Assembly (NCBI RefSeq): GCF_002797755.1
Contig: NZ_PGFI01000011.1
Location: 1,917,691-1,981,690 of the forward strand
Length of the DNA: 64,000 nt
Direction: 5' to 3'
Source: Brevirhabdus pacifica
Lineage (GTDB): Bacteria; Pseudomonadota; Alphaproteobacteria; Rhodobacterales; Rhodobacteraceae
Shown here piece by piece: positions 855 through 24,276 of the stretch; the stretch's first letter is position 1, and each line of letters starts with the position of its first letter. The position numbers and the translations under genes are program-made. The notes beneath the pieces are model-generated. The model searched no databases and had not been told where the DNA came from. It was given only the letters and a program-made list of their open reading frames with translations.

Positions 855-873
855 AACGAAATGGATTTTCGCA
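855..873. promoter_or_regulatory. Candidate operator, copy 1 of a 19-bp palindrome
   Basis: On the minus strand the site reads TGCGAAAATCCATTTCGTT, matching 13 of 16 defined positions of TGCGRAATNNNATTYCGCA, the pattern shared by four intergenic sites in this island. It lies 16 bp upstream of the acyl-CoA synthetase GTG and 208 bp upstream of tesB. Binding by the island's IclR-family regulator (14886-15704) is an inference. Confidence 0.5.
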
Positions 874-1080
874 CTGCGGAAGTGTTGCCTTCGCCGTCCC
901 CGAAGGTCAAGCACCTCGGACCGCGTCTGCCGCCGGGCCGGATCCCGGGCCCGGCCGGGTCTGCTCCGGGTCTGCTCCGAGAGGCCCGCTCGCGGGTCTT
1001 GGCGCCGATTGTGCCCCCGGGCGCGGTATGTGTAAACAGGTGCCAACCGGCAGTTTCCTGCCCCAGCCACCGGAGCTTCC

Positions 1081-1956
1081 ATGACCGATCCCGTCGCGAC
1101 CCTGCTGGACATCCTGGATGTCGAACGCCTGGAGAAGAACCTCTTTCGCGGTCGTGGCGAGGGCGGCGAGACCACCCGGCGCATCTTTGGCGGCCAGGTC
1201 GTGGCCCAGGCGCTGGCGGCGGCCTATCGCACGGTCGAGGGGCGGCAGTGCCATTCGCTGCATTCCTACTTCCTGCGCCCCGGCGATCCATCGGTCCCTG
1301 TGATCTACGAGGTCGACCGCGCCCGCGACGGCGGCAGCTTCACCACCCGCCGGGTGGTGGCGATCCAGCACGGGCGGCCGATCTTCAACCTCGCGGCCTC
1401 TTTCCACGTCGAGGAGGAGGGCCAGAGCCACCAGCACCCGATGCCCGCCGTCCCCCTGCCCGCCGATCTGCCCGACTGGCGCAAGGAGCGCGAGCGGATG
1501 GCCCAGCACCTGCCCGAGGAGCGGCGCGCCGATTTCCTGCGCCCCTCGCCCATCGAGGCCTGCCCGGTCGATCCCTACGACTACGTCAACCCGAGCCCGG
1601 CCGACGGAACCCATGCCTGGTGGTTCCGGGTCGCGCGCCCGGTCGAGGGGCCGGCGGCCCTGCACCAGTGCCTGATGGCCTATGCCTCGGACAAGTATCT
1701 GCTGGGCGCCTCGCTCCGGCCCCACGGCGAATCCTACGTCACCGGCAACATCATGACCGCCAGCCTCGACCACGCGATCTGGTTCCATAACCCGGTGCGG
1801 TTCGATGAATGGCACCTTTACGCGATGGACAGCCCCTTTGCGGGCCATGCGCGGGGCTTCACCCGGGGGGCGATCTATACCGCCGAGGGGGTGCTGGTGG
1901 CCAGCGTCGCGCAGGAGGGGCTGGTGCGCCCGCTGAAGGACCGCCGGAAGCGGTGA
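1081..1956 (+). CDS. tesB: Acyl-CoA thioesterase II (TesB)
   Basis: Hydrolyses acyl-CoA to free acid and CoA in the cytoplasm. The 291 residues match the usual length of about 286, with two hot-dog domains. The N-terminal half carries FGGQVVAQAL and HSLHSYFLRPG, family hallmarks. The C-terminal half has the MTASLDHAIWFH stretch with the Asp and the late VASVAQEGL stretch with the Gln of the Asp-Thr-Gln active site known from E. coli TesB. It stands alone, divergent from an acyl-CoA ligase and convergent with the PcaF-like thiolase. Its likely job is recycling CoA from overflow or dead-end acyl-CoAs made by the surrounding pathway. Confidence 0.93.
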   Translation: MTDPVATLLDILDVERLEKNLFRGRGEGGETTRRIFGGQVVAQALAAAYRTVEGRQCHSLHSYFLRPGDPSVPVIYEVDRARDGGSFTTRRVVAIQHGRPIFNLAASFHVEEEGQSHQHPMPAVPLPADLPDWRKERERMAQHLPEERRADFLRPSPIEACPVDPYDYVNPSPADGTHAWWFRVARPVEGPAALHQCLMAYASDKYLLGASLRPHGESYVTGNIMTASLDHAIWFHNPVRFDEWHLYAMDSPFAGHARGFTRGAIYTAEGVLVASVAQEGLVRPLKDRRKR

Positions 1957-2010
1957 CGCCTCCGGCGGGGATATTTATCCGACAATGAGACTGGCCCCGG
2001 GCGGGAAGGG

Positions 2011-3213
<1,203 letters not shown>

Positions 3214-3233
3214 CGGGTCGTTTCCTTTCAAGT

Positions 3234-4901
3234 TCAGGCGCGGGAGGCGGTGGCGCGGCGGTTGATCTCGTCGATCGTGGCGAAGGCCGAGATGGCCTGG
3301 GCGCTGGCGCGCACATGCAGAACGGCCGCCCCGTCGTGGGCCAGGAAGTCGCGGACCACGGCATCGACATCGTCGCCCTGCCCCACGACAAAGCCCCCGG
3401 CACCGAAGCTGCGCGCCCATTGGGCAAAGTCGGGATTGACCAGGTCGGTGCCCGCCACCCGGCCCGGGTGATCCCGTTCCTGATGCAGGCGGATGGTTCC
3501 GTAGGTGCCATTGTCGGAGATCACGATCCGGGGCCGCGCGCCCTGGGCCATGGCGGTTGCAAGCTCGTTGCCGGTCATCAGCACGCCGCCGTCGCCGACG
3601 AAACCCAGCACGCAGCGGTCGGGATGGCGCATGGCGGCGGCGACGGCGCCGGGCACGCCCAGCCCCATCGCGCCGCCGACGGAACCCACGGCAAGCTCTT
3701 CGCCGGTCCAGGGCCAGACCCTGTGCACCCAGCCCGAGAAATTGCCCGAATCCGTCACCACGATCGTCTGAGGCGGGGCGGCCCGGGCCAGGGCCGAGGC
3801 GACCGCGCCGAAATCGAGCCCGTCCTCCATCGCCCGGGGGCTGTAATCGGCGACCCCCTGCATGAATTCCCTGATCCGTGCCTGCCAGGGGGCGCGGTCA
3901 GGAGCGTCACCGCGCGCTTCGGCCGCCAGGGCAGTGCAGAAATCCGCGGGCGCGCAGACCAGCGCCACCTCGGTCCGGAAGACGCGGCCCGGCACCTCGG
4001 CGTCGGGCCAGACATGGACCAGGGGCTGGTCCGGTTCAGGGGCACGCGGGAAGCTGTAGCCCTGGGTCGGCACATCGCCCAGTCTGGTGCCGATGGCCAG
4101 CACCAGATCCGCGTCCGCCAACAGGTCGACATGGGGTTTCGGGATCTTGAAGCCTAGGTGCCCGGCATAGAGGGGCGAGGAGTTGTCGAAGATTTCCTGA
4201 TGCTTGAATGTCAGCGCCACGGGGATGCCGTGGGCTTTTGCCAGCGCGGCCAGCGCCTGCCGCCCCTCGGGCGCGGCCAGGCCGCCGCCGGCGATGATCA
4301 GCGGTCGGCTGGCGCGGGAAAGCAGCGCGCCGACCCGCGCCAGCTCCTGCCGGGAGACGCCGGCGACGGGCGTCGGCTGGGGCGCGATGACGGGGGCCGA
4401 GACCGCGTCGCCCAGCATGTCCTCCGGCAGCGACAGGATCACCGGGCCGGGGGTGCCGCTGGCGGCGACGTGGAAGGCACGGGCTACCGTCTCGGCCAGT
4501 TGAGCGGGGTCGCTGACCTCCCACACGCCCTTGGCGATGCCGCCGAACATCTGGGAATAGTCGACCTCCTGGAAGGCGCCGCGACCGCGCTCGAATCGGG
4601 CGACCTGCCCGATCAGCACCACCAGCGGCACGGCGTCCTGCTGCGCCAGGTGGACGGCGATGGAGACGTTGGTCGCCCCGGGACCGCGGCTGACCGCAAC
4701 CAGCCCCGCGCGCCCCGTCAGCTTGGCATCGGCCACGGCCATCAGCCCGGCGCCCCCCTCGTGGCGGCAGACCACCGTCGCGATCCGGTCGCTGTCGCGC
4801 AAGGCGTCCAGAAGGGCCAGGTAGCTTTCGCCCGGAACACAGAAAAGCCTGTCCGCGCCCTGGGCGCCCAGACAGTCCACAAGATGATCGGCTGCACGCA
4901 T
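3234..4901 (-). CDS. Thiamine diphosphate-dependent enzyme, acetolactate synthase-like superfamily
   Basis: A 555-residue ThDP enzyme with the three-domain POX/ALS layout: an N-terminal pyrimidine-binding domain with the activating Glu48 in RHEGGAG, a central FAD-like/transhydrogenase domain, and a C-terminal ThDP domain with GDGGVLMTGN followed by ISDNGTYG near residues 433-460 for Mg-ThDP. The HEGGAG stretch differs from the HEQGAG usual in biosynthetic acetolactate synthase, and no regulatory-subunit gene follows, so a catabolic decarboxylase or C-C lyase is more likely. It heads a two-gene unit with the PcaF-like thiolase and is divergent from the TRAP operon, sharing an operator region. 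The ATG at 4901 has a GGGAGGA site. The substrate cannot be told from sequence. Confidence 0.85.
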   Translation of the reverse strand: MRAADHLVDCLGAQGADRLFCVPGESYLALLDALRDSDRIATVVCRHEGGAGLMAVADAKLTGRAGLVAVSRGPGATNVSIAVHLAQQDAVPLVVLIGQVARFERGRGAFQEVDYSQMFGGIAKGVWEVSDPAQLAETVARAFHVAASGTPGPVILSLPEDMLGDAVSAPVIAPQPTPVAGVSRQELARVGALLSRASRPLIIAGGGLAAPEGRQALAALAKAHGIPVALTFKHQEIFDNSSPLYAGHLGFKIPKPHVDLLADADLVLAIGTRLGDVPTQGYSFPRAPEPDQPLVHVWPDAEVPGRVFRTEVALVCAPADFCTALAAEARGDAPDRAPWQARIREFMQGVADYSPRAMEDGLDFGAVASALARAAPPQTIVVTDSGNFSGWVHRVWPWTGEELAVGSVGGAMGLGVPGAVAAAMRHPDRCVLGFVGDGGVLMTGNELATAMAQGARPRIVISDNGTYGTIRLHQERDHPGRVAGTDLVNPDFAQWARSFGAGGFVVGQGDDVDAVVRDFLAHDGAAVLHVRASAQAISAFATIDEINRRATASRA

Positions 4902-4960
4902 CGCCTACGTCCTCCCCCGTTCGCTTGACACAATCTGTCTCGGCTTCTAGTAAATCGCTA

Positions 4961-4979
4961 TGCGAAATGCAATTCCGCA
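4961..4979. promoter_or_regulatory. Candidate operator, copy 2 of the 19-bp palindrome (best match)
   Basis: TGCGAAATGCAATTCCGCA is a near-perfect inverted repeat, with arms matching in 7 of 8 positions around a 3-bp centre. It sits in the divergent region, 60-78 bp upstream of the ThDP-enzyme start and 82-100 bp upstream of the TAXI gene. It fits the whole shared consensus and is the reference site for the other three. Confidence 0.6.
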
Positions 4980-4985
4980 AAACAA

Positions 4986-5060: not shown

Positions 5061-6203
5061 GTGAGACATCAGATCATCGCCATGGTGGGCGCTTTGGCGC
5101 TTGGCGCCGGCTCTGCCGCCGCCGAAAGCCACATCCAGCTTCCGAAACAGCTGTCGTGGACGGCCTATGATACCGGCTCGGCCGGCTACAACCAGTCGGT
5201 CGCCATCGGGGCGGCCCTCCAGGATGCCATGGGCATCAACCTGCGGGTGCTGCCGGGCAAGAACGACGTCTCGCGCACCGAGCCGCTGCGCCAGGGACGG
5301 GTGCAGTTCTCGGCCACGGGCGTGGGCGGCAGCTTCATGGCTCAAGAAGGCGTCTTCGAGTTCGGCGCCGAGAACTGGGGCCCGCAGCCCATCCGCGTGC
5401 TGCTGGCCAACAACGGCGGCGCCATCAACCTGGCCGTCGGCGTTGCCGGCGATATCGGGGTCGAGGAATTCTCGGACCTCAAGGGCAAGCGCGTGGCCTG
5501 GATCGTCGGCGCCCCGGCGCTTAACGTGAACACCGAAGCCTATCTCGCCTATGGCGGCCTGACCTGGGACGACGTGGAGCGCGTTGATTTTGGCGGCTTC
5601 GGCGCCTCATGGAAGGGCCTGATCGAGGGTCAGGTCGACGCGGCCTTCGCCTCGACCAACTCGGGCATGGCCTACGAGGCTGCGTCCAGCCCGCGCGGAC
5701 TGATCTGGCCGCCGATCGACCCCGAGAACAAGGACGGCGTCGCGCGGATGAAGAAGATCGCGCCCTTCTTCTCGCCGAACGTGGCCAAGGTCGGGGCCAC
5801 CATCGACGGCGGTCCGGGCTATGCCGGGGCCGGTTATGCCTACCCGGTGCTGGTCGCCACCAGCGAGACCGACACCGACCTGGCCTACAACATGACCAAG
5901 GCCATGGTTGAGCTTTACGACCAGTACAAGGGCAAGGCCCCCGGCATCAACGGCTGGGCGCTGGACAAGCAGGACCTGAACTGGGTCGCCCCCTACCACG
6001 AGGGCGCGGTGAAGTATTTCAAGGAAGCCGGCATCTGGACGGACGAGGCCCAGGCCCACAACGAAAAGCTGCTCGCCCGCCAGGAGGCGCTGGCCGCCGC
6101 CTGGGAAGAGCTGAAGGCCGAGGGCCCCTCGGACTGGGAAGCTGCCTGGACCGAGAAACGCCGTGCAGCACTTGAGGCCGGCGGCTTCGAGCTGGTGTTC
6201 TAA
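5061..6203 (+). CDS. TAXI family TRAP transporter solute-binding protein
   Basis: Periplasmic receptor of a TAXI-type TRAP transporter, 380 residues. The GTG at 5061 follows GGAGGAGA closely and gives a clean signal peptide (hydrophobic core near residues 5-20, cleavage after AAA at about 21), whereas the longer upstream frame buries it. The mature protein begins with the family-typical WTAYDTGSAGYNQSVAIGAALQ and later has LKGKRVAWIVGAPALNVNTEAYL. It is followed by its fused permease, separated by a stable hairpin. Because the same operon continues with an acyl-CoA ligase and beta-oxidation genes, the ligand is probably the carboxylic acid degraded here. Ligand identity is an inference. Confidence 0.93.
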   Translation: MRHQIIAMVGALALGAGSAAAESHIQLPKQLSWTAYDTGSAGYNQSVAIGAALQDAMGINLRVLPGKNDVSRTEPLRQGRVQFSATGVGGSFMAQEGVFEFGAENWGPQPIRVLLANNGGAINLAVGVAGDIGVEEFSDLKGKRVAWIVGAPALNVNTEAYLAYGGLTWDDVERVDFGGFGASWKGLIEGQVDAAFASTNSGMAYEAASSPRGLIWPPIDPENKDGVARMKKIAPFFSPNVAKVGATIDGGPGYAGAGYAYPVLVATSETDTDLAYNMTKAMVELYDQYKGKAPGINGWALDKQDLNWVAPYHEGAVKYFKEAGIWTDEAQAHNEKLLARQEALAAAWEELKAEGPSDWEAAWTEKRRAALEAGGFELVF

Positions 6204-6220
6204 GGCGACACTGACCCTGC

Positions 6221-6252
6221 GGCGGCCCGCCCCTTCGGGTGCGCGGGCCGCC
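6221..6252 (+). other. Intergenic hairpin between TRAP receptor and permease genes
   Basis: GGCGGCCCGC (6221-6230) pairs perfectly with GCGGGCCGCC (6243-6252), and the 12-nt loop contains CCCTTCGGG, which can fold further. It lies 17 bp after the receptor stop codon. It has only a weak T-run (CTTTT), so partial termination or protection of the upstream mRNA, giving excess receptor over permease, is the likely role. Confidence 0.6.
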
Positions 6253-6280
6253 CACCTGCCCTTTTGCGGAGGCTCGGAGC

Positions 6281-8365
6281 TTGACCGACAGACCCACAGA
6301 TCCCGCCCGTCACCCCGACACCGCAGCCGGCAGTCCCGATATCATTCTGCCCAAGGTCGAGATCGACGGCGGCAGCCCTGCCGAGCGCATCAGCGGCCCG
6401 GCCCGCTACACGGTCATCCTGGGCACGCTTGCCGCGATCCTGCTGGTGGTCAACCAGCTCTTCAACCTGCATCTCTTCGGGCTGACCCTGATCGACGGGC
6501 GCTATCTCTATCTTCTGGGCGGCATTTTCCTTGCGCTCAGCTTCATCATTTTCCGCGCCGGCGGCGGCAAGGGCGCAAGCCCGGCCTGGTATGACTGGAT
6601 TCTGGCGGCGCTGGCACTGGCCGCGACCGCCTATCTGGTCGCCACCGCGCAGCAGAACCTGTCCCAGGGCTGGGAATACGCCGCCCCCGAACAGGCCCGG
6701 TGGGTCGCGGTCGTCTTCTTCGCGCTGATCCTCGAGGCCACGCGCCGGGCGGGCGGGCTTGTCCTGTTCCTGATCGTCACGGTCTTTGCATTCTACCCCA
6801 CCTTCGCGGGCCACGTGCCCGACCCCTTCTCGGGCTTCCAATCAACGCTGATGGAGGCGCTGCCCTATCACATCTACTCGTCCGAAAGCTCGTTCGGCAT
6901 CCCGATGAAGGCCTTCGGCGGGGTGGTGATCGGCTTCATCCTGTTCGGCGCGGTGCTGCAACGCACCGGCGGCGGGCAGTTCTTCAACGATCTGGCGCTG
7001 GCGATGGTCGGGCGGTATCGCGGCGGGGCGGCCAAGGTCTCGATCTTCGCGTCGGGGTTCATGGGGTCGATGTCGGGCTCGGTCATCTCGAACGTGCTGA
7101 CGACGGGTGCCGTTTCGATCCCGGCCATGCGCAAGACGGGCTTTTCGGCCCGCACCGCCGCCGCGACCGAGGCCTGTGCCTCGACGGGGGGTGTGCTGAT
7201 GCCGCCGATCATGGGGGCCACGGCCTTCGTGATGGCCTCGTTCCTGTCGCGCCCCTATGTCGAGATTGCCCTGGCCGCGGCCATCCCGTCGCTGCTGTTC
7301 TATTTCGGCCTTTTCGCCCAGATCGACGCCTATTCGGCGCGCCGGGGCCTGCGCGGCATGGCGCGCGCCGACCTGCCGATGCTGCGCCGGACCCTGGCCG
7401 AGGGCTGGCTTTACATCTTCGTCTTCGCGCTTTTGATCTTTATGATGGTGGGTCTGCGCCGCGAAACCTCGGCCCCCTTCTACGCCACGGTCCTTCTGCT
7501 GGTGGTGAACCAGTTCCTGCCCAGCCACCGGTTGAACCTGCGCCGTCTGGGCGACATGATCGTGGGCGTCGGCATGGGCCTGGCCGAGTTGACGGCGATC
7601 CTGCTGGGGGTCGGCCTGATCGTCGGTAGCTTCTCGGCCACGGGCCTCGCCGGCACGCTGGTCAATGAGCTGGTGTTCCTGGCCGGCGACAACACCTTCG
7701 TGCTGCTGCTGATGGGTGCGGTCACCGCCTTCATCTTCGGCATGGGGATGACGGTGACGGCCTGCTACATCTTCCTGGCCGTGGTGCTGGCCCCCGCCCT
7801 CGAGGCCGGCGGGCTGAACCAGTTGGCCGTGCATCTCTTCATCCTCTACTGGGGCATGGTCAGCTACATCACCCCGCCCGTGGCGCTGGGGGCCTTTGCC
7901 GCCGCGACCATGGCGGGCGCCAGCGCCATCTCGACAGGGATCGAGGCGATGCGCCTGGGTGGTGTGATCTACATCGCGCCCTTCTTCTTCGTGCTGAACC
8001 CGGCGCTGGTCGGCGACGCGCCCGGCTGGGAAATCACGGTGGCGCTGACCTCGGCCCTGCTGGGGGTGGCGATGATCTCGATGGCGCTCCAGGGGTATGT
8101 CAGCCTGGTCGGACCGCTGGACCGGGGCGCGCTGGCTCTGCCGCTGCGGGTGCTGATGTTCGCGGGCGGCTTCTTCATGGCCCTGCCCAGCACCGAGCTG
8201 ATCGGCCTGGGCTATGGCGAGACGGCCGCCATCGGCCTGGCCCTGGCCGCCCTGCCCCTGATGAGCGCCTGGCGCGCAGGTCGGGCCGACGACCTGCTGG
8301 CCGCCACGACCACCGCCGCCCCCGCGACCGCCACCGGCGGCGACGGCGGATCGGGTCGGGCATGA
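6281..8365 (+). CDS. TRAP transporter permease, fused 4TM/12TM (DctQ-DctM) type
   Basis: Inner-membrane permease of the TAXI TRAP system, 694 residues from a TTG at 6281 (GCGGAGG upstream). An ATG at 6239 lies in the loop of the intergenic hairpin and has no ribosome site. The first ~150 residues hold the small-subunit-like helices, then come the DctM-like region with MGSMSGSVISNVLTTGAVSIPAMRKTGFS and EACASTGGVLMPPIMGATAFVMA, the conserved substrate/sodium loops of this family. More than a dozen hydrophobic segments are visible. It ends in a Thr/Ala/Gly-rich tail and overlaps the next ligase gene by ATGA, tying import directly to CoA activation. Confidence 0.93.
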   Translation: MTDRPTDPARHPDTAAGSPDIILPKVEIDGGSPAERISGPARYTVILGTLAAILLVVNQLFNLHLFGLTLIDGRYLYLLGGIFLALSFIIFRAGGGKGASPAWYDWILAALALAATAYLVATAQQNLSQGWEYAAPEQARWVAVVFFALILEATRRAGGLVLFLIVTVFAFYPTFAGHVPDPFSGFQSTLMEALPYHIYSSESSFGIPMKAFGGVVIGFILFGAVLQRTGGGQFFNDLALAMVGRYRGGAAKVSIFASGFMGSMSGSVISNVLTTGAVSIPAMRKTGFSARTAAATEACASTGGVLMPPIMGATAFVMASFLSRPYVEIALAAAIPSLLFYFGLFAQIDAYSARRGLRGMARADLPMLRRTLAEGWLYIFVFALLIFMMVGLRRETSAPFYATVLLLVVNQFLPSHRLNLRRLGDMIVGVGMGLAELTAILLGVGLIVGSFSATGLAGTLVNELVFLAGDNTFVLLLMGAVTAFIFGMGMTVTACYIFLAVVLAPALEAGGLNQLAVHLFILYWGMVSYITPPVALGAFAAATMAGASAISTGIEAMRLGGVIYIAPFFFVLNPALVGDAPGWEITVALTSALLGVAMISMALQGYVSLVGPLDRGALALPLRVLMFAGGFFMALPSTELIGLGYGETAAIGLALAALPLMSAWRAGRADDLLAATTTAAPATATGGDGGSGRA

Positions 8366-9927: not shown

Positions 9928-9928
9928 G

Positions 9929-12025: not shown

Positions 12026-12027
12026 GA

Positions 12028-13215: not shown

Positions 13216-13217
13216 CA

Positions 13218-14288: not shown

Positions 14289-14328
14289 GGGTCGCCCGCC
14301 CGGTCATCCGCGAACCCCAATTTCCATG

Positions 14329-14364: not shown

Positions 14365-14394
14365 GCTTGCGCTGAAGATCACGATTGCCGGCGG

Positions 14395-15704: not shown

Positions 15705-15804
15705 CCCGCATTCCTGTCTTCGTCTCGCGCGGCGCGGCCCGTCGGGGCCGCTCCTGCGCATTGATGTGCCCGGGCCTGCCCGGTTGGGGGTCGCGCCCTG
15801 CCGC

Positions 15805-16593
15805 TCATATCGCGGTCAATCCGCCGTCGAGGGCGATGGCCTGCCCCGTCATGAAACTGTTCTCCTCCGAGCAGAGCCACAGCATCGCCGCGGCGACCTC
15901 CTCGGCGGTGGCCACGCGGCCCATGGGAACGCGCGCCGTCAGCCTGGCCTGGCGAGCCTTGCCCTCCGGGTCCTCTACCCCAGATCCGGCACCGGTCAAG
16001 GCGTCAAGCATCGGCGTCTGGGCAAAGGAGGGGCAGATCGCATTGACCCGCACGCCCCGTGACGCCCCCTCGTCCGCCGCCGCACGGGTCAGCCCCACCA
16101 CCGCGTGTTTCGACGCTGCATACCCTGCCAAGCCGCCCGCGCCCACCAGCCCCGCGGCGGATGCGACGTTGAGGATCACCCCGCCACCCCCGGCAGCCAT
16201 GGCCGGGATCTGCCGTTGCAGCCCCAGAAAGACGCCGCGGGCGTTGACGGCCATGACGCGATCGAACTCCTCGACCGGCAGGTGCTCGATCGGGCCGGGC
16301 GCGTGGACGACGCCGGCGTTGTTGATGGCCACGTCCAGCCGGCCGAAACGGGCGAGAACGCGGTCGTGCATCGCCGCCGCCGCGTCGGCCTCGGCCACGT
16401 CGCCCGGCACCGCCAGCACCTGCGCGCCCTGCCCCTCCAGCCGGGCGCAGAGCGCCTTGAGCGGCCCCTCTTCCCGGTCCGAGAGGGCCAGCGTCGCGCC
16501 GGTGGCGGCGAACCGGGCCGCCGCCGCGCGGCCAAAGCCGCCCGCCGCGCCGGTGATCAACACCACGCGGCCCCGGGGTGCCGCCTCAGGCAT
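15805..16593 (-). CDS. Short-chain dehydrogenase/reductase (SDR)
   Basis: NAD(P)-dependent oxidoreductase of 262 residues, classical SDR. The Rossmann motif TGAAGGFG is at about residues 15-22, NNAG is present (INNAGVV), and the catalytic pair is YAASK. The C-terminal FMTGQAIALDGGLTAI is typical. It is the last gene of the leftward operon and overlaps the phosphotransferase gene by 8 bp. In the levulinate (lva) pathway of Pseudomonas putida an SDR interconverts a 4-oxo and a 4-hydroxyacyl-CoA next to homologues of the neighbouring kinase and dehydrogenase, so a similar hydroxy/oxo step is plausible here. Confidence 0.9.
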   Translation of the reverse strand: MPEAAPRGRVVLITGAAGGFGRAAAARFAATGATLALSDREEGPLKALCARLEGQGAQVLAVPGDVAEADAAAAMHDRVLARFGRLDVAINNAGVVHAPGPIEHLPVEEFDRVMAVNARGVFLGLQRQIPAMAAGGGGVILNVASAAGLVGAGGLAGYAASKHAVVGLTRAAADEGASRGVRVNAICPSFAQTPMLDALTGAGSGVEDPEGKARQARLTARVPMGRVATAEEVAAAMLWLCSEENSFMTGQAIALDGGLTAI

Positions 16594-17692
16594 CTCGCAT
16601 CGCCTTCACCCCGCCTTCGGCGAAGCGCGGCACAAAGGTGCCCATCCGCGCCGCCCGCTCGGGGTTCGAGGCGTTCCCATCCAGCGCCCGCTTGCGCACA
16701 CCTTGCAAGATCGCCGCCATGCGGAAGAAGCAGAAAGCCAGGTAGAAGTTGAAATTCTCGATCCCGCCGACGCCGGTCCGGCGGCAATAGTCGGCGATGA
16801 AAGCCTCGTCCTCGGGCAGGCCGTGGGCCTTGCGATCCACCCCCGCCAGGCCGCGCCCCTCGGGGCCCGGCGGCATCCGCCATTGCATGATGACGGCCGC
16901 CAGATCCGCGAAGGGATGGCCCGTGGTCGACAATTCCCAGTCCAAGACGGCTGCGCAGCGGGGCGCGTCGGGCGCGAAAAGCAGGTTGTCGATACGGAAA
17001 TCCCCGTGCACCAGCGTGCGCCTGCCGTCATCGGGCGGCGCGTTCTCGTCCAGCCAGCGCATCAGGACCTCCATGTCGGCGATCTCGTCGGTCTGGCTGG
17101 CGCGGTATTGCTTGATCCAGCGGTCGATCTGCCGGCGGTAGTAATTGCCCTCGGGGCCGTAATCCGACAGGCCCGCATCCGACAGGTTGACGGCGTGGAT
17201 GGCGGCCAGCACGCGGTTGATCTCATCATAGATCGAGCGGCGGCCGTCGGCGTCCATGTCGGGCAGGCGCGGATCGACGAAGCCGCGCCCCTCGACATGT
17301 TCCATCACGTAGAATTCGGACCCTAGGACCGAGGGATCGTCGCAATAGGCCAGCATTCGCGCCACGGGCACGTCGCTGCCCGCCAATGCCTTCTGCACGC
17401 GAAATTCCCGGTCCACCGCGTGGGCCGATTTCAGAAGCACACCCGGCGGCTTACGCCGCAGCACGTAGCGTTGCGCGGGCGTCTCCAGCAGGAAGGTCGG
17501 GTTGGACTGGCCCAGCGCGAACTTGCGCGCCTCCAGCGGCCCCTGGAAGCCGGGCAGCGTCGCGGCCAGCCAGGCCTCGACCGCGCCGAGGTCGAGGCCG
17601 GTGGCCCCGGTGTCGGTGCCGGTGGGGGTGCCGGGGTCGGTGTCGGTGGCTTTCGCGGGGCCGGCCTGGGCCTCTGTCGCGGGATCGGTCAT
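16586..17692 (-). CDS. APH/ACAD10-11-type phosphotransferase (candidate hydroxyacyl-CoA kinase)
   Basis: Kinase-fold protein of 368 residues related to aminoglycoside phosphotransferases and to the kinase domain of ACAD10/ACAD11. The Brenner motif HGDFRIDN is at 229-236 and the metal-binding DWE at 251-253, both intact, so catalysis is likely. GQSNPTFLL (61-69) is the typical nucleotide-loop start. Residues 15-32 are a low-complexity Thr/Asp/Gly stretch encoded by short GGTGTC/GGTGCC repeats. The ATG at 17692 has GGAG upstream. In human ACAD11 this domain is fused to a dehydrogenase; here that dehydrogenase is encoded two genes upstream, suggesting phosphorylation of a 4-hydroxyacyl-CoA before elimination. 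Confidence 0.9.
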   Translation of the reverse strand: MTDPATEAQAGPAKATDTDPGTPTGTDTGATGLDLGAVEAWLAATLPGFQGPLEARKFALGQSNPTFLLETPAQRYVLRRKPPGVLLKSAHAVDREFRVQKALAGSDVPVARMLAYCDDPSVLGSEFYVMEHVEGRGFVDPRLPDMDADGRRSIYDEINRVLAAIHAVNLSDAGLSDYGPEGNYYRRQIDRWIKQYRASQTDEIADMEVLMRWLDENAPPDDGRRTLVHGDFRIDNLLFAPDAPRCAAVLDWELSTTGHPFADLAAVIMQWRMPPGPEGRGLAGVDRKAHGLPEDEAFIADYCRRTGVGGIENFNFYLAFCFFRMAAILQGVRKRALDGNASNPERAARMGTFVPRFAEGGVKAMRDA

Positions 17693-17706: not shown

Positions 17707-18402
17707 TCAGCTGTAGGTCAGCAGATCGTCCGCCGAGGCGGCGTCGATATGGGGTGTCTCGTTGAAACTGTGCAGGTAAAGCCCCTCGCGACCGACGATC
17801 AGTCGCGACATGGCACAGTTCTTCATCTGCAGTTGCAGGCGGATCATCTGTTCCGCCGGGGCATCCAGGCTACTTGCCACCAGTCGGCCCAGCGCCCCGC
17901 CCGAACTGACGGCCAGAAGCCGCCCGCTGCGCCCCGCGCCCGCCAGCGCCGCGATCATCGCGTCCCGCGCCGCCGCCACCCGGCCGCAGAAGGCCGACCA
18001 GGTTTCGGGCGGGTCCGCGATCTCGTCGCGCTGCCAGGCCAGCACCGTATCGCGCAGGGTGCGGAAATGCGCGCGCCGGTCGCCGTCGGGCGTCATGCCT
18101 GCCCCCTCGGGCGCAGGGCCGTCACGAAAGCGGGCGGCCAGCAAGCCCTTGAAATCGAACTCGTTCAGGCCCGGGTCCACGGTATAGGCTGCGGGATCCA
18201 GCCCCATGGCTTCGGCGATCCCCTGATAGGTTTCCCGGTGGCGCCGCTGGGCGCCGATGACCACCAGGTCGGGTCGCAGCCCCGCGGCCAGAAGCGCCCG
18301 GCCGAGGGCCACCGACTGCCGGTGGCCCCGTTCCGACAGGACATCGTAATCCGCCGCCCCGAACGAGGCCTGGGCGTGGCGTATGGCCAGCAGCTCGGCC
18401 AC
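17707..18402 (-). CDS. Histidine phosphatase family protein
   Basis: Phosphoglycerate-mutase-like fold, 231 residues from a GTG at 18402 that lies 1 bp after the upstream stop codon. The catalytic motif is degenerate at the start (LLAIRHAQASFG: RHAQ instead of RHGE/RHGQ) but keeps the key Arg-His pair. AQRRHRETYQ carries the second Arg and LLAVSSGGALG lies where the second catalytic His is usually found (usually VSHGG or similar; here SSGG). Loss of that His is notable and may weaken phosphatase activity. It is placed between the kinase and the ACAD11-like dehydrogenase genes, so a phospho-intermediate is a reasonable ligand. The exact role is unknown. Confidence 0.85.
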   Translation of the reverse strand: MAELLAIRHAQASFGAADYDVLSERGHRQSVALGRALLAAGLRPDLVVIGAQRRHRETYQGIAEAMGLDPAAYTVDPGLNEFDFKGLLAARFRDGPAPEGAGMTPDGDRRAHFRTLRDTVLAWQRDEIADPPETWSAFCGRVAAARDAMIAALAGAGRSGRLLAVSSGGALGRLVASSLDAPAEQMIRLQLQMKNCAMSRLIVGREGLYLHSFNETPHIDAASADDLLTYS

Positions 18403-18403
18403 G

Positions 18404-19642
18404 TCAGCGCGGCTCGTTCGAATACTGGCGCAGCTCGTGGCGGGCGACCTGGCGGCGGTGCACCGCGTCGGGGCCATCGGCAAAGCGCAGGGTGCGCAGC
18501 TTGGTCCACATGGCGGCCAGGGGCTGATCCTGGCTGATCCCGCCCGCGCCGTGCATCTGCATGGACTGGTCCACCACTTCCAGCGCCGTCAGCGGCGCCA
18601 CCACCTTGATCATGCTGATCCAGGGGGCCGCGGCGCGGTTGCCCTCGGTGTCCATCACCCAGGCGGCCTTCAGGCACAGCAAACGGGCCTGCTCGATCTC
18701 CATCCGGGCGTTGGCGATGATGTCGTAATTGGCGCCCAGCTCGACAAGGTTCTTGCCGAAGGCCTGTCGTGTCAGGCCGCGCCGGCACATCAGCTCCAGC
18801 GCCTTTTCGGCCAGGCCGATGGCGCGCATGCAATGGTGGATGCGGCCGGGCCCAAGCCGGCCCTGCGCCACTTCGAAGCCGCGCCCCTCGCCCAGGATCA
18901 GGTCCTCGGCCTTGACGCGAGCATTGGTGAAGCGGACGTGCATGTGCCCGTGGGGGGCATCGTCGTTGTTGAAGACGTTCATGGGGCGCAGAACCTCGAC
19001 CCCTTCGGTGTCCGCGGGCATGAAGAACATCGAGTGGCGCGAGTGCTTGTGGGCGTCGGGGCTGGTGCAGGCCATCACGATGTAAAGCGCGCAGCGCGGG
19101 TCGCCCGCGCCCGAGGCCCACCACTTGTCGCCGTTCAGCACCCAGTCGTCGCCGTCCCGCTCGGCCCGGAGCGAGATGTTGGTCGCGTCCGACGAGGCCA
19201 CGTCCGGCTCGGTCATCAGGTAGGCCGACCGAATCTCGCCCTTCAGGAGCCGCCCCAGCCAGCGTTCGCGGTGGGCGTCGGTGCCGTAGCGTTCCAGCAC
19301 CTCCATATTGCCGGTGTCGGGGGCGTTGCAGTTGAAGACCTCGGCGGCGATGCCGACCTTGCCCATCTCCTCGGCGAGGTACGCGTATTCGACCGTGCTC
19401 AGCCCTTTGCCGCGCTTGCTGTCGGTCAGCCAGAAGTTCCACAACCCGCGCTCGCGCGCCTTGGCCTTCAGGCCCTCCATGATCTCGATCTGACGGTCGG
19501 TCAGGGCAAAGCGGCCGCCCGAGGGATGGCGGCCGATCTCGTCGTGGTATTCGGCATCCAGCGGCGCGATCTCGTTCTCGACCATGTCGCGCACCTGCTG
19601 GACCAGCGGCCGCACCCTGTCCGTCATTCCCAGATCCATCAT
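18404..19642 (-). CDS. ACAD11-like acyl-CoA dehydrogenase family protein
   Basis: Acyl-CoA dehydrogenase-fold flavoprotein of 412 residues. AYLMTEPDVASSDATNI, WASGAGDPRCALYIVM, GPGRIHHCMRAIGLAEKAL and MQMHGAGGISQDQPLA are typical of the ACAD11 branch. Near residue 388 it reads ADGPDAVHR, with Asp where classical enzymes have the catalytic Glu, again as in ACAD10/11. With the nearby phosphotransferase it reproduces, as separate genes, the two activities of ACAD11, which removes the 4-hydroxyl as phosphate to give an enoyl-CoA. AGGGAGAGA precedes the ATG. It overlaps the nitronate monooxygenase stop by 4 bp. Confidence 0.92.
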   Translation of the reverse strand: MMDLGMTDRVRPLVQQVRDMVENEIAPLDAEYHDEIGRHPSGGRFALTDRQIEIMEGLKAKARERGLWNFWLTDSKRGKGLSTVEYAYLAEEMGKVGIAAEVFNCNAPDTGNMEVLERYGTDAHRERWLGRLLKGEIRSAYLMTEPDVASSDATNISLRAERDGDDWVLNGDKWWASGAGDPRCALYIVMACTSPDAHKHSRHSMFFMPADTEGVEVLRPMNVFNNDDAPHGHMHVRFTNARVKAEDLILGEGRGFEVAQGRLGPGRIHHCMRAIGLAEKALELMCRRGLTRQAFGKNLVELGANYDIIANARMEIEQARLLCLKAAWVMDTEGNRAAAPWISMIKVVAPLTALEVVDQSMQMHGAGGISQDQPLAAMWTKLRTLRFADGPDAVHRRQVARHELRQYSNEPR

Positions 19643-20628
19643 TCTCTCCCTTGTTGCGCGGCGGCGACCATGCGGTCCCGGGCGCGATTGTATTCCGTCT
19701 CGATTCTCGCCACGACCTCGGCCGCGGAAACGATGTCGCGCACCGCGCCGATCCCCTGTCCCGCGCCCCAGATCTCCTTCCAGGCCTTGGGCTTGGCGGA
19801 TCCGTCCTTGAAGCTCATCGCGTCGGCGTCCGCCTCGGGCAGCGCGGCCGGATCAAGGCCCGCGCGCCGGATCGAGGGGGCCAGGTAGTTGCCCGACACG
19901 CCGGTAAAGAGGCTGGAGGTCACGATGTCCTCGGCGCCGCTGTCGATCAGCATCCGCTTGTATTCGGGGTCGGCATTGGCCTCGTGGGTCGCAATGAAGG
20001 GCGAGCCGATGTAGCCCAGGTCAGCCCCCAACACCTGTGCGGCCAGCAGCGCCTCGCCCGTGGCGATGGCCCCCGACAACAGCAGCGGTCCGTCGAACCA
20101 GTCGCGGATCTCGCGCACCAGGGCGAAGGGCGATTGCGGCCCCGCATGCCCGCCCGCCCCGGCGGCGACGGCGATCAGCCCGTCGGCCCCCTTGTCGATG
20201 GCCTTGCGGGCAAAGCGGTTGTTGATCACGTCGTGCAGGGCGATGCCGCCGCAGGAATGAGCGGCCTCGTTCACCTCGACCCGCGCGCCAAGCGAGGTGA
20301 TCCAGATCGGCACCTTCCAGCGGGCGCAGATCTCCAGGTCGCGCATCAGGCGCGTGTTGGAGCGGTGGACGATCTGGTTGACCGCGAAGGGAGCCGCCGG
20401 CCTATCGGGATTGGCCTGGTTGTGACGGTCGAGCTCCTCGGTGATGCGCTTCAGCCAGGCTTCCAGCAGGATCGGCTCGCCCTCGGCCTCGCGGGCGTTG
20501 AGGGCGGGGAAGGATCCGACCACGCCGGCCTTGCACTGGGCGATGACCAGATCCGGGTTCGAGATGATGAACAGCGGTGAAGCCACCGCCGGGATCCGCA
20601 GACCCTTCAGGATCGCCGGAAGGCTCAT
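19639..20628 (-). CDS. Nitronate monooxygenase family FMN protein
   Basis: FMN-dependent TIM-barrel protein of 329 residues, related to 2-nitropropane dioxygenase. It starts at the ATG at 20628, which overlaps the thiolase stop; the longer in-frame extension lies within the thiolase gene. Visible are PAVASPLFIISNPDLVIAQ at the start, IAVAAGAGGHAG for phosphate/FMN binding, LLLSGAIATGEALLAAQVLGADLGYIGSPFIAT, and MLIDSGAEDIVTSSLFTGVSGNYL. Many homologues sit in fatty-acid or terpenoid catabolism clusters and act on unknown substrates, so true nitronate oxidation is uncertain. It is co-translated with thiolase and ACAD genes. Confidence 0.9.
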   Translation of the reverse strand: MSLPAILKGLRIPAVASPLFIISNPDLVIAQCKAGVVGSFPALNAREAEGEPILLEAWLKRITEELDRHNQANPDRPAAPFAVNQIVHRSNTRLMRDLEICARWKVPIWITSLGARVEVNEAAHSCGGIALHDVINNRFARKAIDKGADGLIAVAAGAGGHAGPQSPFALVREIRDWFDGPLLLSGAIATGEALLAAQVLGADLGYIGSPFIATHEANADPEYKRMLIDSGAEDIVTSSLFTGVSGNYLAPSIRRAGLDPAALPEADADAMSFKDGSAKPKAWKEIWGAGQGIGAVRDIVSAAEVVARIETEYNRARDRMVAAAQQGRE

Positions 20629-21830
20629 CAAAGCACCTCGAAGAGGCCCGCCGCCCCCATGCCGCCACCGACGCACATGGTGCAGACGACATAGCGCGCG
20701 CCGCGACGCCGCCCCTCGATCAGCGCGTGGCCGACCATGCGGGCGCCCGACATGCCATAGGGATGGCCGATCGAGATGGCGCCGCCGTTGACGTTCAGCA
20801 GCTCGTCGGGAATGCCTAGCCGGTCGCGACAGTAGAGCACCTGCACCGCGAAGGCCTCGTTCAGCTCCCACAGGCCGATGTCGTCGACGCCCAGCCCGTG
20901 GCGCTTCAGCAGCCGGGGCACGGCGAAGACCGGGCCGATGCCCATCTCGTCGGGGGCGCAGCCCGCGACCGCCATTCCCATGTAGCGGCCCAAGGGCGAC
21001 AGGCCCCGGCGCTCGGCCTCGGCGGCCTCCATCACGACGCTGGCCGAAGCCCCGTCGGACAGCTGGCTGGCGTTGCCGGCGGTGATGAACCGGCCCTGTG
21101 TGATGCGCTGGCCATCCTTCTGCACCGGCTTCAGCGCCGAAAGCCCCTCCAGCGTCGTTTCGGGACGATTGCCCTCGTCGGCCGAGAGGGTGACGGTGCG
21201 GCGGCTGATCTCGCCGGTTTCGCGGTCCTTGACCAGCATGTCGCTGGGCATCGGCGCCAGCTCGGCGTCGAAGCGGCCGGCCTGCTGGGCTGCGGCGGTG
21301 CGCTGCTGGGAGCGCAGGGCGTATTCGTCCTGGGCCTCGCGGCTGATCTCGTAGCGGTCAGCGACGACCTCGGCCGTCTCCAGCATCGACATGTAGATGG
21401 CGGGGTGATGCTCCACCAGCCAGGGGTCGCGGGCGCGGTGGGCGTTGCGGTGTTCGTTCTGAACGAGGCTGACGGATTCGACGCCGCCGGCGACCGTGAT
21501 GTCCATGCCGTCGTGGATCACCTGTTTCGCGGCGGTGGCGATCGCCATCATGCCGCTGGCGCATTGGCGATCCAGCGACATGCCGGCCACGCTGTCGGGC
21601 AGCCCGGCCCGAAGCGCCGCCTGCCGCGCGATGTTCTGGCCCGAGGATCCCTGTTGCAGGGCGGCGCCCATGACCACATCCTCGACCTCGGCGCCGGTAA
21701 TGCCGGCGCGGGCCACGGCCTCGGCGACGACATGGCCGGCCAGGGCCTGGGCCTGGGTGTCGTTGAAGGCGCCGCGATAGGCCCGGCCGATCGGGGTGCG
21801 TGCGGTGGATACGATGACGGCGTCTCTCAT
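20628..21830 (-). CDS. Acetyl-CoA C-acetyltransferase / 3-oxoacyl-CoA thiolase
   Basis: Thiolase of 400 residues. Nucleophile Cys90 in [19 protein letters not shown] with the His, and [16 protein letters not shown] with Cys386 are all intact. It differs from the PcaF-like paralogue at 2011-3213 ([12 protein letters not shown] instead of NQAGEDNRNVARM), so the two probably have different chain or head-group preference. The ATG at 21830 has GGAAAGGAAA upstream. It overlaps maoC by 4 bp and the nitronate monooxygenase by 1 bp, so all are translated together. Confidence 0.93.
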
Positions 21831-22342
21831 GCGCTTTCCTTTCCGGCGGCAGGCCGAGGCGTGGCGGCCCCGGCATCCGTTTCGCCAAGATAACGGCGAT
21901 TCAACCATTGGGCGACCAGGGCGGGTTTCTCCTCGCCCTCGATCTCGACGGTGACGTCCCAGGTGACGGTGATCTCGCCCGGGCGCCGCTCTTCGAGCTT
22001 GTTCAGGACGAAACGGGCGCGGATACGCGCGCCGACCCGCACGGGGTTGAGAAAGCGCAGCCGGTCAAAGCCGTAATTGATGCTCATCCGCATGCCCGCG
22101 AGGCGCGGCTGCGCCTGTGCGGCCAGCGCCGAGAGGACCGAAACGGTCAGAAAGCCATGGGCGATGGTGCCGCCGAAAGGGGTCTCGGCGCGGGCGCGGT
22201 CGGGATCCACATGGATGTACTGGTGATCCCCCGACACGTCGGCGAAGGCGTCGATCCTGGCCTGGTCGATCACCAGCCAGTCCGAGACGCCAAGCTCCTG
22301 CCCGACGCTCGCGGCCATCTCGTCGCGTGTCATCTCCGCCAT
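21827..22342 (-). CDS. MaoC family (R)-specific enoyl-CoA hydratase
   Basis: Hot-dog hydratase of 171 residues, first gene of the seven-gene leftward operon. The hydratase-2 motif [18 protein letters not shown] (about residues 33-50) has the catalytic Asp and His; [18 protein letters not shown] follows. It would hydrate a trans-2-enoyl-CoA to the (R)-3-hydroxyacyl-CoA. As the operon makes an enoyl-CoA through the ACAD11-like enzyme, this is the natural next step, with a SDR and thiolase available for oxidation and cleavage. GGGAGGG lies before the ATG. A candidate IclR operator is 61-79 bp upstream. Confidence 0.92.
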
Positions 22343-22402
22343 GTGCGGCCCTCCCCGGCCTGTCCGTGGCGGGGCCCCTGGGTGGCCCCGTTCGTTTTGC
22401 TG

Positions 22403-22421
22403 TGCAGAATAGGGTTTCGCT
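22403..22421. promoter_or_regulatory. Candidate operator, copy 3 of the 19-bp palindrome
   Basis: TGCAGAATAGGGTTTCGCT matches 13 of 16 defined positions of the shared palindrome. It lies in the 178-bp gap between the fatty-acid ligase stop and maoC, 61-79 bp before the maoC start, where a promoter for the seven-gene operon is expected. Confidence 0.5.
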
Positions 22422-22520
22422 GATGCGGTGACAAGTCACCTGCCCCGGGTGCGGACCGCACGGGGAGAAAGCCGAAGGCTGGCGGGTCGTCGCGCCCGCC
22501 TCGCCCGGCCCCCGCGATCC

Positions 22521-24203
22521 CTAGGCCTGGGCCCCCGATTTCCCGGGCAGCTCGTAATCCGCGAACCGCCGCCGCAGGTGCAGCTTGGAAACCTTGCCCG
22601 TCGCCGTCAGCGGCAGCTCCTCGACGAAGACCACATCGTCGGGCAATTGCCAGCTTGCGAACTTGCCGTTCAACCGCGCCAGCAGGTCGCCGGGCGTCGG
22701 CGGCGTGGCAGGATCGGTGGGCACCACGACCAGCAGCGGCCGCTCGTCCCACTTGGGATGGGGCACCGCGATCACGGCGCAGTTCGCGACCTGCGGATGG
22801 CCCATGATCGCGTTCTCGAGGTCCAGCGACGAGATCCATTCGCCGCCCGACTTGATCATGTCCTTGGCCCGGTCGGTGATGGTCAGGAACCCGTCGGGGT
22901 CGATCCGGGCCATGTCGCCGGTGGCGAACCAGCCCTCGGCATCGAAGGCGCCTTCGCTGGCGGCTTCATTGTCGAAATAGGCGCTGACCACGGTGTTGCC
23001 GCGCACGTGGAGGGCGCCGCTTGCCTCGCCGTCATGGGGCAGACGATGCCCCTCCTCATCGAGGATCTTCATCTCGACCCCGAAGAGCCGGCGGCCCTGC
23101 TGCGACTTGACCTCGATCCGCGCGTCCCGGTCCAGCGTCTGCATGTGGTCGGGCAGGTTGCCCTGGGTGCCGACGGGGCTCATCTCGGTCATGCCCCAGG
23201 CGTGGCAGACGTTGACGCCGGCATCCTCGAAGGCCGCGATCATGCTGGCCGGAGCGGCCGAGCCGCCGACGACCACGTCGCCGAACCCCTCGGGGATGCG
23301 CCCCATCTCCTGGATCCGAGCCAGCAGGCCCATCCAGACCGTCGGCACGCCCCAGGCGGAATAGACCTTCTCGCGGTCCATCAGGTCGAAAAGGCTCTCG
23401 CCATCCAACGCCGGGCCGGGGAACACCAGCGAGGCCCCCGCCAGCGGGGCCGAGTAGGGAAGCCCCCAGGCGTTGACGTGGAAAAGCGGCACCACCGGCA
23501 TGATCCGACGCCCGGGGCGCAACACGTCGGGAAGCGCCAGCGAGATGCTCAGCGCGTGCAGCACGGTCGAGCGGTGGGAATAAAGCGCGCCCTTGGGGTT
23601 GCCCGTCGTGCCGGAGGTATAGCAAAGCCCCGCCGCCGTCTCCTCGGGAAACTCGGGCCAGTCGATGGTGTCGGGCTGGCCGGTCAGCAACTCCTCGTAG
23701 CACAGGGGCGGATCCCCCGCCTCGGTCGGATCCTCGTGATGCGAGAAGATGGGCGCCTCGGGCATATGCGCCCGGTCGGTCATCACGCAGATGCGCAGAT
23801 CATCGGGAAGCTGCGGCGCCAGCTTGGCGATCAGGGGCACGAAGGTCAGATCCACGAACAGCAGCCGGTCCTGGGCATGGCCAAGGATGTAAAGCATCTG
23901 CTCGGCCGAAAGGCGGGGGTTGATCGTGTGGCAGACCGCGCCGATGCCCGAGATGGCATAGTAAAGCTCCAGGTGGCGATAGCCGTTCCAGGCCAGGGTG
24001 GCGACCCGGTCGCCGGGCATGATCCCCTGCTCGCGCAGACCGTGGGCCAGCTGCGCGACCCGGCGCTCGGTCTCGGCATATGTCTGCCGGTGCACGTCGC
24101 CCTCGCAGCGCACCGACACCACCTCGGCGCGGCCGTGGTTCTGGGCAGCGTAGGTCAGGATATCCGCGATCCTGAGGGGCCGGTTCATCATCAGTCCGTC
24201 CAT
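22521..24203 (-). CDS. Long/medium-chain fatty-acid-CoA ligase
   Basis: Adenylate-forming ligase of 560 residues. The P-loop is GLCYTSGTTGNPKGA at residues 192-206, then WGMTEMSPVGTQG, EGWFATGDMARIDPDGFLTITDRAKDMIKSGGEWISS and the C-terminal catalytic Lys in TATGKVSKLHLR. This is the family of medium/long-chain ligases (AlkK-like) common in alphaproteobacteria. The ATG at 24203 has AAGGAGAGA upstream; a much longer open frame upstream is antisense to the MDR gene and not credible. It is divergent from the MDR-SDR pair with a shared operator. It is the third ligase of the island, with the SGGEWISS motif distinguishing it from the other two. Confidence 0.93.
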   Translation of the reverse strand: MDGLMMNRPLRIADILTYAAQNHGRAEVVSVRCEGDVHRQTYAETERRVAQLAHGLREQGIMPGDRVATLAWNGYRHLELYYAISGIGAVCHTINPRLSAEQMLYILGHAQDRLLFVDLTFVPLIAKLAPQLPDDLRICVMTDRAHMPEAPIFSHHEDPTEAGDPPLCYEELLTGQPDTIDWPEFPEETAAGLCYTSGTTGNPKGALYSHRSTVLHALSISLALPDVLRPGRRIMPVVPLFHVNAWGLPYSAPLAGASLVFPGPALDGESLFDLMDREKVYSAWGVPTVWMGLLARIQEMGRIPEGFGDVVVGGSAAPASMIAAFEDAGVNVCHAWGMTEMSPVGTQGNLPDHMQTLDRDARIEVKSQQGRRLFGVEMKILDEEGHRLPHDGEASGALHVRGNTVVSAYFDNEAASEGAFDAEGWFATGDMARIDPDGFLTITDRAKDMIKSGGEWISSLDLENAIMGHPQVANCAVIAVPHPKWDERPLLVVVPTDPATPPTPGDLLARLNGKFASWQLPDDVVFVEELPLTATGKVSKLHLRRRFADYELPGKSGAQA

Positions 24204-24257
24204 GCCTTCGTCTCTCCTTGTCTGTCGCGCACCGCGGGCGCCGCGCCGGTTCTGCCT

Positions 24258-24276
24258 TGCGAAACCCGGTTTCGAA
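24258..24276. promoter_or_regulatory. Candidate operator, copy 4 of the 19-bp palindrome
   Basis: TGCGAAACCCGGTTTCGAA matches 13 of 16 defined positions. Its core CGAAACC-C-GGTTTCG is a perfect inverted repeat (24260-24274). It is central in the divergent region, 55-73 bp from the ligase start and 42-60 bp from the MDR start. The core also resembles the GAAAC-N-GTTTC boxes described for the TetR-type fatty-acid regulator PsrA, so another binder is possible. Confidence 0.55.

What the first reader, a model, noticed from the sequence alone, without database searches (positions are those of the whole stretch)
855..24276. A four-site operator regulon built on one 19-bp palindrome, probably for the embedded IclR regulator
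Four intergenic sites (855-873 minus, 4961-4979, 22403-22421, 24258-24276) fit TGCGRAATNNNATTYCGCA with 16, 13, 13 and 13 of 16 defined positions. Each lies in front of a different transcript of the acyl-CoA island: ligase/tesB, ThDP enzyme/TRAP operon, the seven-gene maoC operon, and ligase/MDR. Only one regulator, an IclR protein, is encoded in the island. This would define the regulon and hence the substrate pathway as one unit.
Basis: partly seen in the sequence, partly recalled or inferred. Interest (0 to 1): 0.75.

Follow-up and report, generated by a model that had tools for sequence, protein, structure and literature searches.

The report
Three-part IclR operator controlling 4-hydroxyacid genes
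Four control regions of a bacterial acid-breakdown gene island share one DNA signal that recurs next to the same regulator gene in related bacteria, and this signal, a palindrome usually followed by a third half-site, is predicted to be where that IclR-type regulator likely switches the whole pathway, probably one for 4-hydroxy acids, on and off together.

Summary
The four sites are real and not chance: a weight matrix built from other genomes ranks exactly these four first in the 64-kb window, and pattern-free 12-mer counting in orthologous promoters finds the same element. In relatives the 19-bp palindrome is often followed, after exactly 1 bp, by a third half-site. Sites 1, 3 and 4 carry it; site 2 has a 6-of-8 version. 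The exact three-box pattern occurs in 22 of 26 family genomes with an orthologous IclR against 17 of 269 others; in our 3.42-Mb genome it occurs twice, at sites 3 and 4. The island's seven gene-order units start at four intergenic regions, each with one site; iclR closes the site-3 unit, where the operator overlaps a promoter-like TTGTCA-N17-TATTCT. Three-box IclR operators are a known kind (Suvorova and Gelfand 2021; PcaU, PobR, HmgR), so this is a new member. The island encodes relatives of both halves of ACAD11, suggesting 4-hydroxyacyl-CoA catabolism. Binding, effector and sign of control are untested.

The parts
855..873 (+). site 1 palindrome (boxes 1-2), between ligA (-) and tesB (+)
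   Evidence: (rank 2 of the window)
875..882 (+). site 1 third box TGCGGAAG, 7 of 8
4961..4979 (+). site 2 palindrome, perfect, between thdp (-) and taxi (+); shares GAAATGCAATTC with 11 of 19 orthologous acad1-type promoters
   Evidence: (rank 1)
4952..4959 (-). site 2 weak third box AGCGATTT, 6 of 8 (a 6 of 8 match also at 4981-4988 +)
4925..4953 (+). possible promoter TTGACA-N17-TAGTAA just upstream of site 2 (read by eye; not reported by the promoter scan)
   Evidence: sequence; one search found none
22403..22421 (-). site 3 palindrome in front of the maoC...iclR unit
   Evidence: (rank 4)
22394..22401 (-). site 3 third box AGCAAAAC, 8 of 8
22406..22434 (-). promoter-like TTGTCA-N17-TATTCT; five of the six bases of the -10-like hexamer lie in box 2
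24258..24276 (-). site 4 palindrome between ligC (-) and mdr (+)
   Evidence: (rank 3)
24249..24256 (-). site 4 third box GGCAGAAC, 7 of 8
14886..15761 (-). iclR, IclR-family regulator, last gene of the maoC unit (true start may be the internal Met 20)
1..839 (-). ligA, acyl-CoA ligase, continues left of the window; GTG start read from the sequence
1081..1956 (+). tesB-type acyl-CoA thioesterase (217 bp from the centre of site 1)
2011..3213 (-). 3-oxoadipyl-CoA thiolase (PcaF, above curated cut-off); start estimated from the profile match
3234..4901 (-). ThDP enzyme
5061..8365 (+). TAXI solute-binding protein (start read from the sequence; ORF from 5004) and fused TRAP permease
8362..14288 (+). 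ligB, fused enoyl-CoA hydratase/3-hydroxyacyl-CoA dehydrogenase, PimC-like and PimD-like acyl-CoA dehydrogenases
15805..16593 (-). SDR dehydrogenase
16586..17692 (-). APH-type kinase, relative of the ACAD11 kinase domain
17707..18483 (-). histidine phosphatase-superfamily protein (longest ORF; true start probably below 18404)
18404..19642 (-). acad3, acyl-CoA dehydrogenase, relative of the ACAD11 dehydrogenase domain
19639..22342 (-). NMO-type flavoprotein, thiolase, MaoC hydratase
22521..24203 (-). ligC, acyl-CoA ligase
24318..26119 (+). mdr (medium-chain reductase) and SDR

Best explanation
The four sites share a sequence that recurs beside orthologous iclR genes in other genomes, and they are predicted to be operators of the island's own IclR regulator, each built of a palindrome plus a third half-site 1 bp away (weak at site 2). 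The regulator would bind as two dimers or a tetramer to the three boxes, box 1 to box 3 being 20 bp or about two helical turns. At site 3 the boxes overlap a promoter-like TTGTCA-N17-TATTCT. I therefore expect repression without substrate and release by an acid or CoA ester of the pathway, with iclR repressing itself as last gene of the site-3 unit. Shown here: the sites, the third box and its fixed spacing, their conservation, the link to iclR orthologs, the overlap with a promoter-like element at site 3, the gene content. Inferred: that IclR binds them, the transcription units, repression, autoregulation, the effector, and 4-hydroxy acids (perhaps with a second carboxyl group) as substrate.
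For: A matrix from 30 foreign regions ranks the four sites 1-4 in the window (21.3, 20.4, 18.8, 18.2; next 15.2; reversed window maximum 13.7). Without any pattern, the 12-mers shared by most of 19 orthologous acad1-type promoters spell the same element, third box included: GAAATGCAATTC in 11, TGCACAGCGGAA in 9. Third box: of 70 palindromes outside mapped genes, 22 reach 7 of 8 at offset 1 bp, none at offsets 0 and 2-11, one at offset 12; of 13 inside genes, 0 at offset 1. Relaxed three-box: 52 sites in 29 of 30 iclR regions (1.09 Mb), 3 in the reversed regions, 1 in 110 kb of unrelated loci; in the window only sites 1, 3 and 4, and site 2 when 6 of 8 is allowed. Exact three-box: 22 of 26 ortholog genomes against 17 of 269, Fisher 6.9e-19; 23 of 28 such hits in ortholog genomes lie within 8.5 kb of iclR. 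In 18 of 19 acad1-type promoters TTGTCA lies 7 bp before box 1, as at site 3. HTH identity to 25 orthologs averages 71% against 52% for the C-terminal part.
Against: No binding data. Genomes within one family are not independent, so the Fisher value overstates the case. The palindrome class alone is also common in genomes without this IclR (exact form in 10 of 20 against 24 of 30). Four of 26 ortholog genomes (G228, G244, G075, G211) lack the exact three-box, and 17 genomes without the ortholog have it. One search scored at most 8 candidates per genome, so some orthologs may be missed. Site 2, the best palindrome, has the weakest third box, and 48 of the 70 palindromes have no third box of 7 of 8 at offset 1. 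A -35/-10 position can also serve an activator (recalled for PcaR).
Confidence: 0.85

Rival explanations
1. IclR binds the same three-box sites but acts mainly as a substrate-dependent activator, like PcaR or PcaU (this rival concerns the sign of control only and overlaps with the main reading).
For: The nearest curated family is PcaR/PcaU/PobR (127 bits, below cut-off 285). Three-box sites are known for PcaU, PobR and HmgR (PMC8222616 passages). The site-3 operator lies on promoter-like elements, as recalled for PcaR.
Against: At site 3 box 2 covers most of the -10-like hexamer. At site 2 the palindrome would lie downstream of the by-eye promoter. Site 1 is centred about 25 bp before the ligA start.
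Confidence: 0.25
2. Another IclR paralogue encoded elsewhere in the genome, and not the island's own gene, is the main binder of the sites.
For: The palindrome class is shared across IclR relatives: paralogues with 41-44% identity have near-identical recognition helices, and all four paralogue regions scanned also carry three-box sites.
Against: Only one own-genome place matches at E <= 1e-20 (8 of 12 candidates scored). The three-box tracks this ortholog group across genomes and mostly sits within 8.5 kb of it.
Confidence: 0.08
3. The similarity is chance or reflects RNA hairpins rather than operators.
For: The bare core is not enriched genome-wide (48 against 47 reversed).
Against: Fixed third-box offset, 0 of 52 three-box sites inside mapped genes, pattern-free 12-mers, co-occurrence with iclR.
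Confidence: 0.02

Closest known systems
Three-box IclR-family operators (Suvorova and Gelfand 2021, PMC8222616: abstract, first of two parts of Results, passages read)
   Same: Three boxes of alternating direction. By eye, boxes 1-2 have the GRAAY-N3-RTTYC spacing of their group 2 and boxes 2-3 the TTYC-N7-GRAA spacing of their group 1.
   Different: Box sequence GCGRAAY; regulon of acyl-CoA enzymes. Whether this ortholog group is in their supplement could not be checked.
PcaU / PobR / HmgR operators
   Same: Palindrome plus an external direct half-site; the third box is needed for PcaU binding (as cited in PMC8222616, passages).
   Different: PcaU and PobR are listed there for 4-hydroxybenzoate/protocatechuate and HmgR for homogentisate use, with another box sequence; our protein is below the PcaR/PcaU/PobR cut-off.
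AzeR (IclR) with azeTSL TRAP transporter, Phycobacter, PMC10945470 (passages read)
   Same: An IclR regulator beside a TRAP transporter, acyl-CoA ligase and thioesterase genes for a dicarboxylic acid.
   Different: azeT is described there as a C4-dicarboxylate-type TRAP binding protein; here it is TAXI type. The AzeR sequence was not compared.
ACAD10/ACAD11 and the lva operon (PMC12440821 passages; PMC11342911 start of abstract in a listing)
   Same: Kinase and dehydrogenase of the window match the two halves of ACAD11 (272-275 and 398-400 bits).
   Different: Two separate genes here, with a histidine phosphatase-type gene and PimCD-like and PcaF-type enzymes.

Membership tests
IclR-family regulator | HTH_IclR plus IclR_C domains above Pfam cut-offs | tested here: met
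   58.4 (cut-off 22) and 63.6 (cut-off 24) bits
PcaR/PcaU/PobR subfamily | TIGR02431 score above 284.75 | tested here: not met
   127.2 bits
BhcR | NF045644 score above 350 | tested here: not met
   93.0 bits
Three-box IclR operator | third box of alternating direction at fixed spacing | tested here: met
   sites 1, 3 and 4 at 7-8 of 8, site 2 only 6 of 8
Three-box IclR operator | bound by the IclR protein | not testable with these tools
   needs gel shift or footprint
Regulon of this IclR | conserved in orthologous promoters | tested here: met
   19 of 20 acad1-type promoters could be read (G211 cut at a contig end); all 19 have the palindrome with at most 3 mismatches, reversed control 2 of 19
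PimC/PimD pimeloyl-CoA dehydrogenase | TIGR03204 above 623.85 and TIGR03203 above 652.7 | tested here: not met
   475.7 and 235.3 bits
PcaF 3-oxoadipyl-CoA thiolase | TIGR02430 above 597 | tested here: met
   680.3 bits
ACAD11-type 4-hydroxyacyl-CoA kinase/dehydrogenase pair | homology to both ACAD11 halves | tested here: met
ACAD11-type 4-hydroxyacyl-CoA kinase/dehydrogenase pair | activity on 4-hydroxyacyl-CoA | not testable with these tools
   needs an enzyme assay

The most novel reading that the evidence does not exclude
A family-wide IclR regulon for 4-hydroxyacid (split ACAD11-type) catabolism in Rhodobacteraceae, in which a three-box operator lets the regulator choose between two dimer registers (boxes 1-2 or 2-3) to switch promoters, and in which the operator stayed on the transport unit while the transporter changed from an ABC-type binding-protein system to TAXI-TRAP.
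Probability: 0.3. Interest if true: 0.65.

Novelty: new member of a known kind. Interest (0 to 1): 0.45.

Why it matters
It gives a computed regulon, a likely regulator and a testable operator to an uncharacterised acyl-CoA island found in many genera of one bacterial family, and points to 4-hydroxy acids as substrate. The clean spacing and conservation of the third box make it a good system to test the alternative dimer modes proposed for IclR proteins.

Tried and rejected
The hit at 24854-24872 was rejected: inside mdr, matrix score 8.1. A distal site at G000:C1:1258731 (L094:8732) before an enoyl-CoA hydratase scores 19.3 but has no third box. One search looked for it in relatives but read minus-strand loci on the wrong side; redone with the right strand: of 29 relatives' loci 28 could be read (L135 starts inside the gene) and none of these reaches 12 (best 11.4). 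I do not count it as regulon. The site at G000:C2:447711 scores only 12.0 and lies before a radical-SAM/TRAM gene; rejected. The palindrome alone as a marker of this IclR was rejected: exact form in 24 of 30 genomes against 10 of 20 taken from those without an IclR match. The matrix was seeded with a pattern and drifted during iteration (37 seeds grew to 423 sites), so it serves only for ranking; the three-box counts do not depend on it. (a looser pattern in the own genome: 550 places against 283 reversed, list cut) was too unspecific to use. AlphaFold was not used: it would not decide DNA specificity. Literature: the 12-mers GAAATGCAATTC and GAATTGCATTTC were found only in a grapevine and a potato paper (listing). 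Search searches returned none; (14 of 14 listed; 12 of 41 listed; 10 of 46 listed; 15 of 91 listed) I saw listings and read passages of PMC8222616, PMC10945470 and PMC12543098; no paper describing this regulon was seen. This covers only the open library, part of the lists, and no supplements.
Full report
Observation. The motif search gives 5 matches with at most 3 mismatches in 64 kb; the shuffles give a mean of 0.49 and a maximum of 3. The fifth (24854) is inside mdr. In the whole genome there are 23 places against 7 for the reversed pattern.

Anatomy. Pfam and NCBIfam give: ligA (-) with another ligase gene behind it to the left of the window; tesB (+); ThDP enzyme followed by a PcaF-type thiolase (-); TAXI protein, fused TRAP permease, ligB, fused hydratase/dehydrogenase, PimC-like and PimD-like dehydrogenases (+); maoC, thiolase, NMO, acyl-CoA dehydrogenase, histidine phosphatase-type gene, APH-type kinase, SDR and iclR (-); ligC (-); mdr and SDR (+). 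These seven gene-order units start at four intergenic regions, each with one site; the units themselves are inferred, and an ORF at 14326-14784 without Pfam match is left unassigned. The site centres lie, by coordinates, about 25 bp (ligA), 69 bp (thdp), 91 bp (taxi), 70 bp (maoC), 64 bp (ligC), 51 bp (mdr) and 217 bp (tesB) before the starts.

Relatives. IclR relatives at E <= 1e-20 are in 86 of 295 family genomes (at most 8 candidates scored per genome); 26 genomes, the own one included, hold a copy with 49-100% identity, separated by a gap from the group at 44% and below. Named best relatives are Rhodobacteraceae, for example Acidimangrovimonas at 75%. I fetched regions of up to 39 kb around 26 foreign ortholog genes (25 genomes; G214 has two) and 4 paralogue genes. 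They hold related gene sets; the APH-type kinase is found in 27 of 30 regions (missing in G168, G275 and G214's second region).

Ranking. A matrix built from those 30 regions, none from our genome, puts sites 4961, 855, 24258 and 22403 first to fourth in the window, with a gap to the next (18.2 to 15.2); the reversed window reaches 13.7. A pattern-free check is: among all exact 12-mers of 19 orthologous acad1-type promoters the most shared are pieces of this element (GAAATGCAATTC in 11 of 19, also present in our site 2; TGCACAGCGGAA, which runs into the third box, in 9 of 19).

Third box. Those 19 promoters show TTGTCA (18 of 19), seven bases, the palindrome, one base and AGCGGAAC or a variant. 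All 19 hold the palindrome with at most 3 mismatches; reversed, 2 of 19 do. A slide test over 70 palindromes outside mapped genes finds 22 with at least 7 of 8 at offset 1, none at offsets 0 and 2-11, and 1 at offset 12; for 13 palindromes inside genes the count at offset 1 is 0. In our window sites 1, 3 and 4 have 7, 8 and 7 of 8; site 2 has 6 of 8 on both sides. In 12 of 30 regions a further three-box lies within about 55 bp 3' of iclR (palindromes with up to 4 mismatches). Of the genes that follow I tested three, and all are Peripla_BP_6 binding proteins. In our island this transporter place seems to be taken by the TAXI-TRAP genes behind site 2 (inference).

Co-occurrence. The exact three-box is in 39 of 295 genomes and its reversal in 2: 22 of 26 ortholog genomes and 17 of 269 others (Fisher 6.9e-19, relatedness not corrected). 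Of 28 hits in ortholog genomes 23 lie within 8.5 kb of iclR; the other five are on other contigs. Of the 19 hits in the 17 other genomes, six lie within 15 kb of another IclR gene listed, two of them within 70 bp. So the code is shared by IclR relatives, consistent with near-identical recognition helices (LPKPT or LPKAT in orthologs, LPNST in the four paralogues). With up to 2 mismatches our genome has 9 further places outside the island against 4 for the reversed pattern.

Mechanism. At site 3 the scan finds TTGTCA-N17-TATTCT, with five of six bases of the -10-like hexamer in box 2; TTGTCA has the same distance to box 1 as in 18 of 19 orthologous acad1-type promoters. This favours occlusion, that is repression with release by an effector, though PcaR-like activation is not excluded. 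At site 2 the scan found no promoter; TTGACA-N17-TAGTAA was read by eye.

Pathway. The kinase matches the ACAD11 kinase domain (275 bits) and acad3 the ACAD11 dehydrogenase domain (400 bits). ACAD10/11 convert 4-hydroxyacyl-CoA to 2-enoyl-CoA (PMC12440821, passages read). The thiolase at 2011-3213 passes the PcaF cut-off; the PimC/PimD-like pair does not pass its cut-offs. A PimCD-like pair shows fitness defects on C8, C9, C10 and C12 dicarboxylates in a Ralstonia (PMC12543098, passages read). So 4-hydroxy acids, possibly dicarboxylic, are the suggested substrates; this is inference.

Placement. Three-box IclR sites are predicted for 32 ortholog groups (PMC8222616). This is a new, well conserved member of that kind, as far as the main text shows. 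Its protein is below the cut-offs of PcaR/PcaU/PobR and BhcR.

Noticed in passing
L094:8732-8750 (G000:C1:1258731): Strong palindrome 13 bp before a probable TTG start of an enoyl-CoA hydratase, without third box and not seen in 28 readable relatives' loci; perhaps a lineage-specific extra target.
   Followed up: yes
G000:C1:343727-343909 (L168): Cluster of several similar palindromes and a one-mismatch three-box in front of genes that look like cupins, beside what looks like a TctA-type permease (by eye, not scanned); may be the operator of another regulator.
   Followed up: partly
G106, G027, G044, G138, G174, G238, G092 regions, before ligC/acad3-type operons: In seven genomes the third box before a second acyl-CoA cluster ends GCGGTAT instead of GCGGAAC or GCGGAAT, a consistent variant that I cannot explain.
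   Followed up: no
many family genomes: A recurrent near-identical palindrome TTCAGAATGTCGTTCTGAA in genomes with and without this IclR; origin unknown.
   Followed up: no
window 3234-4901: ThDP enzyme fits NF006052 (600 bits, cut-off 539) but its reaction in this pathway is unclear; remote relatives include 2-hydroxyacyl-CoA lyase and cyclohexane-1,2-dione hydrolase.
   Followed up: partly
window 15704-15761: The annotated iclR start may be 19 codons too early: the identical database protein has 272 residues.
   Followed up: no
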